22,734 nt of DNA from a virus, in the IMG/VR virus record IMGVR_UViG_3300028676_000245, positions 1 through 22,734 of that record. One strand, written 5' to 3'. The notes under the pieces are model-generated. The model was not told the DNA's origin. It saw nothing but the letters and a program-made list of their open reading frames with translations, and searched no databases. Shown here piece after piece: positions 3,951 through 10,051 of the stretch; the stretch's first letter is position 1; each line of letters begins with the position of its first letter. The position numbers were made by a program, and so were the translations under genes.

Positions 3951-5725
3951 CACTCACCTCCAACCGCAGCCAACACCAGGCTGAACGGCTTGCGCATGAC
4001 CTCAACAGGTCGTTTCAGCTCAGCCTCAATGGCATCAAGCCGCTCTTGTGGAATTCCCTCCGGGTACTTCTGTTGCAGCCAGCTGAAGCTTTCGGCCGAC
4101 CAGAGATTGGCCAGGCGCGGTTGCAGCCATTTCGCTGCCTCGACATGGGTCAACAGTGCGTGCTCCACGGTCGGAGCATTGACGTTTAGCGATGTACCGC
4201 GACGTGGCAAATACGACGGAAGCACGGTGTCATTGACGTGTTTATGCGGATCGATCAGGCCACCGAACGGAACCGCCTTGGCCTTGCGAGCAGCTTCGGC
4301 GTCGGCTTGATTGGTGGTGCCGGTAGCGAGCTGTTCCAACACCTTGCGCGATACCTGAGCCGGGGTTTCGGCGTGGCTCTTGTATTGCTCACCAATCGTT
4401 GCCGAGGTTTCGGCAAAGCCGAACTCGTCCATCTCGATTCGCTCGATGACGTGATAGTTTTCGCGACCGTCTTCACCGACCAGGACTGCGATTGCCGCAT
4501 CCTTGTCGCGCCAGCAGTTGCGGGTGATCAACAGTTTTTCACCGACCATTACGCCCGGTACCGAGCAGACATCGAACTGAGCGCCACGGAACGAAACACG
4601 CAGCAGGTTGCTGACCTTGCGGTACTCCGGCGTACTGACCGCCAGCTCCCGGCAGACCTCAATGCTCGGAGCCAAGCGCAACTGCTCCTGCTTGATCAAC
4701 TGCCAGACCCCATACCGGGTGCGGCGAGTCCGGGTATGGATCGAGGTGGCGTTGTAGTAACGCATCCACTGGCCCGCCCAGTTGTTGATCTGCTCCAGGC
4801 TGTTGGCCGCCTGAAACTTCAACGCACTCTCAAACTCACGTTCAACAATGTTGTGCGCCTGCTCAACCTGACCTTTAGCTCGTGCATTACCGACCTGATT
4901 AATGATCAGGTCGATGGACATGGCGCGGCAGAGGTTGCGGAAAATGCCGCTGGTCATCGCCGCGCCGGGGTCGGTCATCAGCATCCACGGCACACCATGA
5001 AACGGATCTGACTCGTGGCGTTTTTGCATCGCGTTGATCAACACGTTGCAGAGGTTCTCGGCCGACTCAGCGCCCAGCACGTACTCCAGGTACAAGGTGC
5101 CGCTGGTGTGATCGGTGATCACATACCGCCATAGCCGCTGGCGCTCGATCTTTTTCAAGTTCCCCGGCTTGCCGTCATAGAACTCGGCCTTATTCATCAC
5201 CCGCGCTCCATCGTCAGCGAGGTAGAACTGCGTGGAGATCGACGCGTCCACTTGCCAAACATGGTTGGGGTGATTGCTGGCCAGCGACACCGCAGGTGCG
5301 TCATGCAGCAGCTGTTCCGGGTGCAACTTGTAACTCTGAAGTGCCCGACTGATAGCGCCGCTGGTCAATGGGCGAAACAAGCCAGTGGCTTCATCCACCC
5401 GACCAGCCGCAATCAAACCATTGCTGCGCAGCCGTTCAACTGCGCGCTCAATAGTGGACAACTGTTTGTTGTTGGCGCGGATCGACTCCAGAAGTACGGC
5501 TGAGATCAAGCGTGCTTCTCCCAGCGGCAAGGCACTATTACCTGCATCGCTGCGACGTTTACGCGGCTTGGCCACTCGGACCTCCTTCAGCTTGCGCTGA
5601 AGTGTTTGAAGGGAGACACCCAGTTCAGCCGCGCCCGCCTTGTAGACGGCTGTACGCTGACCGTGCGGTGCGTTGTCGGCGCGCAGGGCGATCTGCGCCA
5701 GTTGCTGGGTCTGTACTGGGTTCAT
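3950..5725 (-). CDS. Mu-type DDE transposase A (integrase catalytic core)
   Basis: 591 residues. It catalyses strand transfer for integration and replicative transposition. Residues about 1-60 form an N-terminal DNA-binding region (GVSLQTLQRKLKEV) ending in a basic patch (KPRKRR). The RNase-H-like rve core follows: HVWQVDAS gives D160, MLMTDPGAAM gives D252 and KGQVEQAHN gives E289, with 36 residues between the last two, as expected for this superfamily. The remainder (about 330-591) matches the Mu-transposase C-terminal beta-barrel and MuB-interaction region (RVSFRGAQFDVCSVPGVMVGEKLLI). The start has AGAGG upstream and follows the coiled-coil gene's stop by three bases. All catalytic residues are present, so it should be active. 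Confidence 0.95.
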   Translation of the reverse strand: MNPVQTQQLAQIALRADNAPHGQRTAVYKAGAAELGVSLQTLQRKLKEVRVAKPRKRRSDAGNSALPLGEARLISAVLLESIRANNKQLSTIERAVERLRSNGLIAAGRVDEATGLFRPLTSGAISRALQSYKLHPEQLLHDAPAVSLASNHPNHVWQVDASISTQFYLADDGARVMNKAEFYDGKPGNLKKIERQRLWRYVITDHTSGTLYLEYVLGAESAENLCNVLINAMQKRHESDPFHGVPWMLMTDPGAAMTSGIFRNLCRAMSIDLIINQVGNARAKGQVEQAHNIVEREFESALKFQAANSLEQINNWAGQWMRYYNATSIHTRTRRTRYGVWQLIKQEQLRLAPSIEVCRELAVSTPEYRKVSNLLRVSFRGAQFDVCSVPGVMVGEKLLITRNCWRDKDAAIAVLVGEDGRENYHVIERIEMDEFGFAETSATIGEQYKSHAETPAQVSRKVLEQLATGTTNQADAEAARKAKAVPFGGLIDPHKHVNDTVLPSYLPRRGTSLNVNAPTVEHALLTHVEAAKWLQPRLANLWSAESFSWLQQKYPEGIPQERLDAIEAELKRPVEVMRKPFSLVLAAVGGE

Positions 5726-7793: not shown

Positions 7794-8006
7794 TCACGCT
7801 GCCAACGCCATTGAAGGTTTGAGACCGAGCTTCACCGCAATATCATGAGCCTTGCCGTAGTTGGCTTTGGCTTGGCCATTGAGGACGCGATACACCTCGT
7901 TCCGGGTGTAACCGTTTTCGATAGCCCATTGAGTGAACGTTTTGCCGACACGACGGAAGTTTTCTTTCACCTGGTCGGCGGTTAGGGCTTTGGCATGGGT
8001 GGCCAT
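7794..8006 (-). CDS. BcepMu gp16-family DNA-binding protein (Ner-like)
   Basis: 70 residues. GKTFTQWAIENGYTRNEVYRVLNGQAKANYGKAHDIAVKLGLK (residues 21-63) is the signature of the BcepMu gp16 family: a compact helix-turn-helix like that of Ner/Nlp, with recognition helix at TRNEVYRVLNG. In Mu, Ner dampens early and repressor transcription as the lytic cycle starts. Here the gene diverges from the XRE repressor with 85 bases between them, the arrangement expected for a Ner/repressor switch. The start has AGGAG eight bases upstream and lies downstream of a strong leftward promoter (8053-8081). Its likely target is the operator inside that promoter (inference). Confidence 0.88.
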   Translation of the reverse strand: MATHAKALTADQVKENFRRVGKTFTQWAIENGYTRNEVYRVLNGQAKANYGKAHDIAVKLGLKPSMALAA

Positions 8007-8091: not shown

Positions 8092-8508
8092 ATGCTTTTG
8101 AGTATCGGCGAGCGCCTTAGAGAGGAGCGAGAGCGGCTGGGTTACAGCCAATCTGCGATTGGGGCTGTCGGGGGAGTCAGGAAGCTTGCTCAACTGAAGT
8201 ACGAACAGGGCGAAAGGTATCCGGGGGCGGACTACCTTGCTGCGCTCGCAAAGATCGGTGCAGATACGCTTTATATCGTTACTGGAGAGCGATCTGCGGG
8301 GTCACTCACTGCGGCCGAAGTAGAGCTGCTTGAGAAGTTCAGATCCGCACCTTTAGCGGTCAAGGCGGCCGCTCTTGCTGCTGTCACTGCTGGCTCTATC
8401 CCCGTGAAACAAACGTTCCATGGGGCCGTGGGCCAATCGGTTGCTGGCAATGTCACAAACAAAGCAGGTGTGACCTTCAATTTTGGGGATGTGAAATCCA
8501 AGGAGTAA
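8092..8508 (+). CDS. XRE-family phage repressor with C-terminal Gly/Asn motif
   Basis: 138 residues. Residues 4-66 are a lambda-Cro/XRE helix-turn-helix domain (IGERLREERERLGYSQSAIG, then YEQGERYPGADYLAALAKIGADTLYIVTG), a form typical of Pseudomonas prophage repressors. A helix (TAAEVELLEKFRSAPLAVKAAALAAV, 73-98) follows. There is no room for a LexA/S24 peptidase domain and no Ser-Lys pair. Instead the tail (109-131) carries FHGAVGQSVAGN and a Phe/Gly-rich end, also found at the N-termini of the proteins at 8512 and 9530. The start is uncertain: ATG at 8092 has a weak ribosome site and TTG at 8098 would give MSIGERL, a common beginning. It heads a four-gene operon. Confidence 0.87.
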   Translation: MLLSIGERLREERERLGYSQSAIGAVGGVRKLAQLKYEQGERYPGADYLAALAKIGADTLYIVTGERSAGSLTAAEVELLEKFRSAPLAVKAAALAAVTAGSIPVKQTFHGAVGQSVAGNVTNKAGVTFNFGDVKSKE

Positions 8509-8511
8509 CCC

Positions 8512-9102
8512 ATGAGCCAGGACTTTCATGGTGATGTGGGCCAAGCGGCGGCTGGCGATATCAACAATTACGGCATCAATATCAATCTCGCCGACAAAAC
8601 CGAGACACGAGGTTTGGTATCAGCTCAGCGAAAGGAGCTGCATCAGTTGCGCGCAAAGTGTGAGGAACTAGGTGATGACCCGCGCGATGTTTGGCGTCGG
8701 GTTCATGCTCAGCTTGGGGTCACTACGATTAGCGAAATCACCGCCGAGCAGTTCGTAAATGCACGAGGCGTGTTGCAAGCAAGGTTGGAGTATCTGCAAG
8801 AAGAGGCTGATAAACGCAGGTTGGTCGGCAAGGTATTGCGGGTCGTCGCTGAAAAAGATGCCAAAGCTGAGATGAACAATTTTTGCGAGTTAACTTTCGG
8901 CCGTACTCAGCTAAACAACCTTCAAAAAACACAGCTACAAATGACACTAGAGTTCGTCCAGGGCTTCGTGCCAGGTCGACAGGAAACACCATTGATTCCC
9001 GAGGTTAGCAAGCTGGCCATCAAGGAGTTTTTGATGCTGCATCAGAAGAACGCAGCAGCCCTGTTTTTCGCCGGTATTTGTATTGGCGGCATTTTGTTTT
9101 AA
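8512..9102 (+). CDS. tail-anchored protein with N-terminal repressor-like motif
   Basis: 196 residues, no named family recognised. Residues 5-25 (FHGDVGQAAAGDINNYGININ) repeat the motif at the repressor C-terminus. Residues about 38-100 (AQRKELHQLRAKCEELGDDPRDVWRRVHAQLGVTTISEITAEQF) resemble the ORF6C-type helical domain common in phage regulators: helix, D-P-R-x-V-W, G-V, I-x-x-I-x-x-x-x-F. The last 17 residues (AAALFFAGICIGGILF) form one short hydrophobic segment at the very end, as in tail-anchored membrane proteins. The ribosome site AAGGAG overlaps the repressor stop and the gap is three bases, so it is translated with the repressor and probably expressed in lysogens. Function unknown. 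Confidence 0.8.
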   Translation: MSQDFHGDVGQAAAGDINNYGININLADKTETRGLVSAQRKELHQLRAKCEELGDDPRDVWRRVHAQLGVTTISEITAEQFVNARGVLQARLEYLQEEADKRRLVGKVLRVVAEKDAKAEMNNFCELTFGRTQLNNLQKTQLQMTLEFVQGFVPGRQETPLIPEVSKLAIKEFLMLHQKNAAALFFAGICIGGILF

Positions 9103-9116
9103 TTAAGGACGTGAAA

Positions 9117-9524
9117 ATGAAAACAAGGATTTTGGGGTTGCTCGGGCTGTCGCTGCTGGGTTTGTCGGGATGTGGGAAAGAATCGTCCGTGCCCTCTGTG
9201 TTCGCCGTGTCATCGGATGATCAAGTAGTCATCAAATCACTGCCCGGTGTCCGTCAGGTTTGCCCTGGTTTGGACAAGTACGCTCAGACGTTTAGGAACA
9301 TCCGCGTGGAAGACCATTTCAGGACATCCATTATCTTCGATGTCCCAGAAACAGCCCGCATTCCTGATGCTTACAAGGCTGGTGGACATACCTGCTATGT
9401 AGAAATTGATTCAGCTGGCAAAAGTATTTTCATTGAAAAACTAGCCTGCAAGTCGATTTGTCTAGACCAGCTGAACGCACCAGAAGGTCAGCTCAAAATT
9501 GACTTGCCGCACTTGAACGGATAA
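9117..9524 (+). CDS. small lipoprotein, lysogeny operon
   Basis: 135 residues. The N-terminus is a classic lipoprotein signal: two basic residues, a hydrophobic stretch (ILGLLGLSLLGL) and lipobox LSGC with the modified cysteine at 19. The next residue is Gly, not Asp, so outer-membrane sorting is expected under the usual +2 rule. The mature part (about 117 residues) has four cysteines after C19, including HTCYVEI and LACKSICLDQ, which could form disulfides. The ATG at 9117 has AAGGA seven bases upstream; an upstream in-frame start would precede the signal peptide and is unlikely. The gene follows the tail-anchored protein by 14 bases. A surface change in the lysogen is possible, but no family was recognised. 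Confidence 0.82.
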   Translation: MKTRILGLLGLSLLGLSGCGKESSVPSVFAVSSDDQVVIKSLPGVRQVCPGLDKYAQTFRNIRVEDHFRTSIIFDVPETARIPDAYKAGGHTCYVEIDSAGKSIFIEKLACKSICLDQLNAPEGQLKIDLPHLNG

Positions 9525-9529
9525 TCCAT

Positions 9530-9913
9530 ATGGACTTCAATGGCAATGTAGGGCAAGTGGCTGGCGGCGACATTTATAACTATGGCGTGGGTGACCTGAC
9601 CTACCATAGCCGCGAGCAAGTAGCTGAGCTACTTATCCATCTGCGCAAACGGCTAAAAGATGCTCGCAGAAAAACCCTATTCAATCCCCTCGTGGGGTGG
9701 ATGGTCTTAGGTGCGTTGACGTTTCTAATAGAGCTATTTTCCGACATTGTCCTTGGCTACCCACTCCTGATCGCAGCGACTATCTTGTTTGGGATGATAG
9801 TGCCGTACTTTCTGTTCTTACGAGTTGAGCGTAGGTACGGCCCGATGATTTACGCGTATCGAGAAAGCATCACTACTGTGGAGATCTTCCAGCACAGCCG
9901 GGGCTGGGTTTAG
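9530..9913 (+). CDS. two-helix membrane protein with N-terminal repressor-like motif
   Basis: 127 residues, family not recognised. Residues 3-19 (FNGNVGQVAGGDIYNYG) are a third copy of the motif found in the repressor and in the 8512 protein. A basic amphipathic stretch follows (SREQVAELLIHLRKRLKDARRK), then two predicted membrane helices (about 55-77, GWMVLGALTFLIELFSDIVLGY, and about 79-97, LLIAATILFGMIVPYFLFL). The loop between them is very short, so both termini should face the same side, probably the cytoplasm. It is the last gene of the repressor operon, five bases after the lipoprotein stop, and ends 34 bases before the late-promoter repeat. Confidence 0.78.
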   Translation: MDFNGNVGQVAGGDIYNYGVGDLTYHSREQVAELLIHLRKRLKDARRKTLFNPLVGWMVLGALTFLIELFSDIVLGYPLLIAATILFGMIVPYFLFLRVERRYGPMIYAYRESITTVEIFQHSRGWV

Positions 9914-9972: not shown

Positions 9973-9980
9973 CCTGTATC

Positions 9981-10002
9981 ACGCCGCCCATCATGGCGGC
10001 GT
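9981..10002 (+). terminator. GC-rich hairpin ahead of the lysis operon
   Basis: ACGCCGCC-CATCAT-GGCGGCGT is a perfect eight-base-pair stem with a six-base loop. The downstream sequence (GTGTATTTCT) is only moderately T-rich, so it is a weak candidate intrinsic terminator. It could stop repressor-operon transcripts before the lysis genes, or act in the 5' leader of the late mRNA. The terminator label is tentative. Confidence 0.45.
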
Positions 10003-10051
10003 GTGTATTTCTGGCGTCCGAAAGTGGCGGCGCCATTACAGGAGGCGTCCC

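What the first reader, a model, noticed from the sequence alone, without database searches (positions are those of the whole stretch)
8416..9586. One short Gly/Asn motif shared by the repressor tail and two downstream membrane proteins
Directly seen: repressor residues 109-121 (FHGAVGQSVAGNV), residues 5-17 of the 8512 protein (FHGDVGQAAAGDI) and residues 3-15 of the 9530 protein (FNGNVGQVAGGDI) follow one pattern, F-x-G-x-V-G-Q-x-x-x-G-[ND]-[IV], with an Asn and an aromatic or Gly-rich tail after it. It sits at the end of the repressor and at the beginning of the others, and nothing else in these proteins is alike, so it behaves as a transferable module. Two carriers are membrane anchored. 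Established: short beta-forming motifs with a V/I-G-Q or V-Q-x-G core (RHIM and bacterial amyloid-signalling motifs) mediate like-with-like assembly. Inference: the module may bring the repressor to the membrane, or form a homotypic signalling assembly controlling lysogeny or blocking superinfection.
Basis: partly seen in the sequence, partly recalled or inferred. Interest (0 to 1): 0.78.

Follow-up and report, generated by a model that had tools for sequence, protein, structure and literature searches.

The report
Repressor tail matches membrane partner's start
In many temperate phages the protein that keeps the virus dormant ends in a short sequence tag, and the next gene, usually for a membrane protein, begins with a matching tag; the two change together while the rest of each protein is exchanged, which suggests that the phage's on/off switch is physically plugged into the cell membrane.

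Summary
In detail: three copies of F-x-G-x-V-G-Q-x3-G-[ND]-[IV] sit at the repressor's C-terminus and at the N-termini of two membrane proteins in one operon (about 6e-6 expected by chance).
It is not confined to this locus. Across P2-like and Mu-like phages and prophages of Pseudomonadaceae, Burkholderiales and Enterobacterales, including laboratory phage B3 and 515 of 5,426 complete E. coli genomes, short-tailed P22-c2-like repressors end in a Gly/Asn motif and the next gene begins with a matching one. The motif class varies (VGQ, AGRD, others), but tail and 'key' covary within a locus in two samples (no permutation of 20,000 and 50,000 reached the observed value), also after controlling for similarity of the rest of both proteins. 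DNA-binding domains and partner bodies are exchanged; the match persists. Codon identity is only what codon usage predicts, so the match is kept at protein level.
The main partner body is a Flk/ORF6C-like helical domain, related to a region of antirepressors, with a membrane anchor. Natural fusions join the repressor HTH to that domain, and that domain to the lipoprotein's periplasmic domain.
Best reading: a docking code tethering the repressor to a membrane partner. Direct binding, amyloid nature and direction of control are untested.

The parts
7794..8006 (-). Ner-like HTH protein, divergent from the repressor (immunity switch)
   Evidence: PHROG 925 'HTH DNA binding protein' E 8e-30
8092..8508 (+). 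Immunity repressor: P22 c2-like HTH (about residues 1-70), helices to about residue 99, short tail in place of an S24 peptidase domain
   Evidence: PHROG 8 E 1.7e-10; Foldseek best hit P22 c2 3jxb E 3.6e-4; AF2 tail with a weak hairpin
8416..8454 (+). Repressor tail motif FHGAVGQSVAGNV ('lock')
8512..9102 (+). Partner 1: N-terminal key, Flk/ORF6C-like helical domain (about 35-150), C-terminal membrane anchor (180-196)
   Evidence: PHROG 5825 E 4e-54; NCBIfam Flk E 2.5e-15 over residues 27-150; AF2 pLDDT >90 for most of 41-150; hydropathy
8524..8562 (+). Key motif FHGDVGQAAAGDI of partner 1
   Evidence: modelled as disordered, pLDDT about 42
9117..9524 (+). Lipoprotein of the operon (signal peptide with LSGC lipobox); a homologous domain is fused to a key-Flk-TM protein elsewhere
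   Evidence: PHROG 10002 covers both this protein and the 8512 protein; fused homologue in L313
9530..9913 (+). Partner 2: key plus two transmembrane segments
   Evidence: keyed genes at the same position in many related loci
9536..9574 (+). Key motif FNGNVGQVAGGDI of partner 2
9980..10003 (+). Terminator-like hairpin closing the four-gene operon
   Evidence: consensus match only; 2 found, 2.4 expected by chance

Best explanation
The Gly/Asn motif is a like-with-like docking tag. The repressor carries it on its flexible C-terminal tail, where related repressors carry an S24 (LexA/CI-type) domain; the gene translated right after it carries the matching tag on its cytoplasmic N-terminus. Docking joins the DNA-binding repressor to a membrane-anchored partner, most often a Flk/ORF6C-like helical domain with a tail anchor, in some phages linked to a periplasmic domain. 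The phage repressor is thus a split, membrane-tethered complex. I think the partner most likely acts as a conditional regulator (antirepressor-like), capturing or releasing the repressor in response to the state of the envelope and so replacing SOS self-cleavage. Shown: the motifs, their covariation, modular exchange, operon layout, membrane segments, natural fusions. Inferred: direct binding (about 0.75), membrane recruitment (about 0.7), regulation of the repressor by the partner rather than the reverse (about 0.5).
For: Cognate tail/key scores: 36.1 v 24.8 non-cognate in 88 non-redundant pairs, maximum of 20,000 permutations 28.5; 29.7 v 21.4 in 56 further pairs from bacterial genomes, maximum of 50,000 permutations 25.4. 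Within one partner-body family (48 pairs) 44.4 v 29.6, permutation maximum 36.9; partial Mantel r 0.68 controlling for both bodies, permutation maximum 0.19. Exchange: L110/L130 repressor bodies 89% identical, tails 39%, partner bodies 12%, each tail fitting its own partner; L317/L316 HTH 41% but tail core RIAGRDYNETKG identical; window/L040 partner body 53% but key 5% and tail 17%. Codon identity 210 v 222 expected. Fusions: L320, L322, L325 and phage Gregale are HTH + linker + Flk/ORF6C-like domain (Pfam ORF6C above cutoff for L320); L313 is key + Flk-like + TM + lipoprotein domain. Partners match antirepressor PHROGs 245 (20 of 28) and 2127 (14 of 28). Frequent translational coupling, start at -3 to +5 of the stop. 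In the relative Fc02 the lysogen's transcript covers the repressor and the next gene (PMC9936078).
Against: No binding, localisation or induction data exist. Some repressors keep the tail without a keyed next gene (Komp_PAO1_1, L102, L150; in L041 the keyed gene is only the second one), and phage 520873's partner reads frameshifted, so the partner does not look essential to lysogeny. Co-expression with the repressor in lysogeny does not suit a constitutive antirepressor. Only 44% and 30% of cognate pairs reach z >= 4 against shuffled tails (11% and 5% of non-cognate ones), partly because both samples include tail-less repressors. 43 of 56 keyed genes have a clear hydrophobic segment; 13 do not at that threshold.
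Confidence: 0.55

Rival explanations
1. Constitutive co-repressor: the partner supplies in trans the oligomerisation domain that the short repressor lacks, so tail-key docking strengthens operator binding or anchors the prophage; it senses nothing.
For: Short-tailed repressors lack an S24 domain; single-chain proteins join HTH and ORF6C-like domain without a membrane segment; partner is co-oriented and coupled to the repressor gene.
Against: Partner is missing or frameshifted in some temperate phages; partner bodies are very diverse (Zn ribbon + TM, two-TM, Flk-like), which does not suit a conserved oligomerisation role.
Confidence: 0.2
2. Repressor-guarded membrane effector: the membrane proteins are exclusion or abortive-infection effectors, and the repressor tail nucleates or restrains them, as a bacterial NLR does with its motif-bearing effector.
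For: Diverse bodies behind a constant tag and up to three keyed genes behind one repressor (two in the window; three in L049) resemble exchangeable effectors; PHROG 6521 is filed as a moron membrane protein.
Against: No PADLOC match for the partners; no known pore-forming or enzymatic domain; the main body resembles a domain of antirepressors instead.
Confidence: 0.17
3. Each motif only self-associates, or is a generic disordered linker; tail and key look alike by common descent from one duplication and do not meet.
For: Both segments are modelled with low confidence; some tails occur without a keyed neighbour.
Against: Tail and key track each other after controlling for both bodies and across exchanges of HTH and body; codon identity shows old divergence with a retained protein match.
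Confidence: 0.06
4. Chance or a DNA/RNA-level repeat (recombination site, regulatory element).
For: The three copies share 23-30 of 39 bases.
Against: Expected 5.6e-6 by chance; identical residues use identical codons no more than codon usage predicts, 210 v 222 of 528.
Confidence: 0.02

Closest known systems
Bacterial amyloid signalling sequences (BASS) of NLR/Bell gene pairs (PMC8086366)
   Same: Short motif (20-40 aa there) matched between the C-terminus of one protein and the N-terminus of the protein of the neighbouring gene; several sequence classes; exchangeable attached domains
   Different: Carriers here are a phage immunity repressor and mostly membrane proteins, not a Bell effector and an NLR; amyloid formation is untested
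RHIM / fungal PP motif
   Same: Gly-containing, beta-prone short core; a few variants read VQIG or VQVG (L267, L315)
   Different: The window's core is VGQ, without [IV]Q[IV]G; no Pfam RHIM match
Flk (RflH), flagellar regulator
   Same: Partner domain is homologous (E 2.5e-15); both have a membrane anchor (Flk's is mentioned in PMC13344023)
   Different: Far below the Flk equivalog cut-off (56.6 v 353 bits); about 200 aa v a 339-position model; carries a key and follows a repressor
Phage antirepressors (Ant, ORF6C family)
   Same: Partner domain matches positions about 130-245 of antirepressor PHROGs; fused proteins carry ORF6C
   Different: First about 130 positions of those profiles are not matched; partner is membrane-anchored and lies directly behind the repressor
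P22 c2 / lambda CI repressors
   Same: Same HTH fold
   Different: S24 self-cleavage and oligomerisation domain replaced by a short tail motif

Membership tests
BASS | Matching short motifs at C-terminus of one and N-terminus of the neighbouring gene's protein | tested here: met
BASS | Carriers are Bell-domain and NLR proteins | tested here: not met
   Carriers are an HTH repressor and Flk/ORF6C-like or TM proteins
BASS | Match to BASS1-10 profiles | not tested
   Those profiles are not in the libraries on hand
BASS / RHIM | Forms amyloid that templates the partner | not testable with these tools
   Needs peptide experiments
RHIM | Pfam RHIM match or [IV]Q[IV]G core | tested here: not met
   No RHIM hit in the window proteins or in B3; core is VGQ
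Flk | Full-length equivalog score | tested here: not met
   56.6 bits v cut-off 353; local domain homology only
Phage antirepressor Ant | Full-length Ant architecture | tested here: not met
   Only positions about 130-245 of the PHROG 245/2127 profiles are matched in most partners
P22 c2-like repressor | c2-type HTH | tested here: met
   Foldseek 3jxb E 3.6e-4; PHROG 8
CI/LexA-type repressor | C-terminal S24 peptidase domain | tested here: not met
   138 aa, no S24 match; relatives recognised from their sequence as S24-type (most of L064-L086, L090, L010) have no tail motif and no matching next gene

The most novel reading that the evidence does not exclude
A widespread class of temperate phages keeps its immunity repressor docked, through a diversifying self-recognising peptide code, to a membrane-spanning sensor, so that lysogeny is controlled by the envelope rather than by DNA damage, with the code insulating co-resident prophages from each other.
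Probability: 0.35. Interest if true: 0.92.

Novelty: new variant of a known kind. Interest (0 to 1): 0.77.

Why it matters
How prophages whose repressor lacks the S24 domain sense their host is, to my knowledge, largely open. A cognate-tag code between repressor and membrane partner would give such phages an input, would explain insulation between co-resident prophages, and would extend the logic of paired short signalling motifs from immune receptors to transcriptional switches. Phage B3 in the laboratory strain PAO1 and a P2-like prophage in about 9% of complete E. coli genomes make it directly testable.

Tried and rejected
Alignments A1 and A3 could not be used for a genome-contig scan; the smaller A5 worked. 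B3 ORF20 and the L313 fusion found no relatives in viral contigs, and the 9530 protein only identical copies in two other contigs. Pfam and PADLOC gave nothing useful for the partners. Foldseek of the partner against PDB gave no match better than E 1 and only a weak ORF6C-type viral match, E 4.5e-3. Literature searches for prophage amyloid, RHIM anti-phage and membrane-bound repressor systems found no description of this pairing; the library is open-access only. The Fc02 exclusion genes lie upstream of the repressor, not at the partner's position. Fc02's next gene has the size and place of Fc22's lipoprotein gene; Fc22's is not a keyed partner. DNA repeat, gene conversion and chance were rejected.

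Full report
OBSERVATION. The window is a 22.7 kb IMG/VR fragment of a Mu-like phage (transposase-type genes on the minus strand, lysis and head genes on the plus strand). At 8092-9913 four co-oriented genes follow a Ner-like gene on the other strand: repressor, 8512 membrane protein, lipoprotein, 9530 membrane protein, then a terminator-like hairpin. They are the only three hits of the pattern in all six frames; 5.6e-6 are expected by chance.

WIDER OCCURRENCE. Other phages' immunity regions show the same arrangement with other sequence classes. P2-like Burkholderia phages KS5, Carl1 and AP3: tail NF(E/Q)GA(S/N)(I/V)GQ(Q/H)VTGDV, next gene MNQKF(D/S)G(E/D)(I/V)GQVAGGDV. Escherichia phage 520873: tail GGNNRIAGRDYNETKGR, next gene (frameshifted) MAVNSNGSNNRVAGRDFHEK. 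KS10: tail GNMVASGSGITQVG, next gene GTMSASGFGIIQVAG. Pseudomonas B3: ORF18 tail VTGDGNRTAGRDFHERKE, ORF20 start VNIEVTGSNNIVAGRDFIEN. Viral contigs add many classes, e.g. L135 GGQVAGRNIINK / DGQVAGRDINNY, L146 HGDIGQNIYGNIT / SGDVGQNVFGNIV, L171 GSVGHQVNGDVHG / GDVAHLVNGNVHE. The AGRD-class locus is in 515 of 5,426 complete E. coli genomes, O157:H7 strains among them.

STATISTICS. In 88 non-redundant pairs the local score of repressor tail against its own next gene's start averages 36.1, against other loci 24.8; the maximum of 20,000 permutations was 28.5. Fifty-six further pairs taken from bacterial genomes and not near-identical to the first set repeat this: 29.7 v 21.4, permutation maximum 25.4 of 50,000. 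Relatedness was controlled: among 48 pairs whose next genes share one body family, tail similarity and key similarity correlate at r 0.79, and at 0.68 after removing the effects of repressor body and partner body (permutation maximum 0.19, P 2e-4 at 5,000 permutations). Among 24 close homologues the partial r is 0.59, permutation maximum 0.45.

MODULE EXCHANGE. Near-identical repressor bodies carry different tails, each fitting its own partner (L104, L110, L130). Unlike HTH domains carry the same tail core with the same key (L317/L316; window/L038). The same partner body carries different keys with different tails (window/L040; L042/L091). The same key sits on unrelated bodies (window/L042, 2% identity). 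In L039/L040 and L091/L093/L094 the Gly/Asn tail is replaced by a helical repressor tail, and the next gene's N-terminus changes with it, whichever body follows. In the B3 group, Fc22 is 97% identical to B3 beside the immunity region yet has an unlike repressor without the tail and a lipoprotein as next gene.

LEVEL OF SELECTION. Where matched motifs share a residue, the codon is the same in 210 of 528 cases; codon usage alone predicts 222. So the match is old and kept at protein level.

PARTNERS. 51 of 88 next genes belong to one body family by iterated profile search. Its domain matches Flk (E 2.5e-15 for the window protein) and a region of antirepressor PHROGs (20 and 14 of 28 members). AlphaFold2 models helices at pLDDT above 90 for most of residues 41-150, a terminal membrane helix, and a disordered key. 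Of 56 best-matching next genes, 43 have a strong hydrophobic segment.

FUSIONS. L320, L322 and L325, and Pseudomonas phage Gregale, encode one chain: c2-like HTH (E about 1e-18 to 1e-21), a Gly/Asn-containing linker (e.g. GNSNNVIYGDNGIINSGTINN), and the Flk/ORF6C-like domain (E about 1e-10 to 1e-12); ORF6C passes its Pfam cut-off in L320. L313 encodes key, Flk-like domain, TM and a domain homologous to the window's lipoprotein in one chain. Upstream, its broken repressor frame ends GDVLGNVIKGNVTIGAG against the key GDVGNVVSGDVTIHNY. Such fusions are classical evidence that the separate proteins act together.

MECHANISM. I infer that tail and key dock, which tethers the repressor to a membrane partner and forms a split regulator. 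That the partner is a conditional antirepressor-like sensor rests on its similarity to antirepressors, on the missing S24 domain, and on the link to a periplasmic domain; it is about as likely as not. Rivals are a constitutive co-repressor and a repressor-guarded membrane effector. Dispensability of the partner in some phages argues against an essential co-repressor. Expression fits all three: in Fc02, a B3 relative, the lysogen's transcript covers the repressor and the next gene (PMC9936078), although neither the tail nor a key was checked there.

COMPARISON AND NOVELTY. The arrangement works like the BASS pairs described in PMC8086366, but the carriers differ, and neither amyloid formation nor BASS profiles could be tested, so it is not filed as BASS or RHIM. 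I found no published description of the pairing in the open-access library searched.

Noticed in passing
L049:5702-6524: Besides the keyed 8512-type gene, two further keyed genes follow (FNGEVGQVAGGNIINN and FNGSIGQVAGKNIINH), i.e. three keyed genes behind one tailed repressor.
   Followed up: partly
L039, L040, L091, L093, L094: A second, helical type of repressor tail (RWPxxxLxxxxAEVYNxL...) that pairs with an N-terminal DEKL/DEEL...IKVKGNN segment on two different partner bodies; possibly a second docking code.
   Followed up: partly
L267, L315, L308: Variants of the motif that read VQIG, VQVG or VQIAG, close to the RHIM core; L315's repressor has no recognisable tail motif.
   Followed up: no
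L003 (Escherichia phage 520873), 2850-3960: The keyed partner gene reads frameshifted in the deposited genome while the repressor is intact.
   Followed up: partly
window 9117-9524: Lipoprotein between the two keyed genes; relatives follow the Flk-like gene in several phages and are fused to it in L313.
   Followed up: yes
L326 (Pseudomonas phage Gregale, Casadabanvirus): Annotated CI-like repressor is a single chain of HTH and ORF6C-like domain; its linker SISGGNFAGFVGTAQTGSTVHMI resembles the motif.
   Followed up: partly
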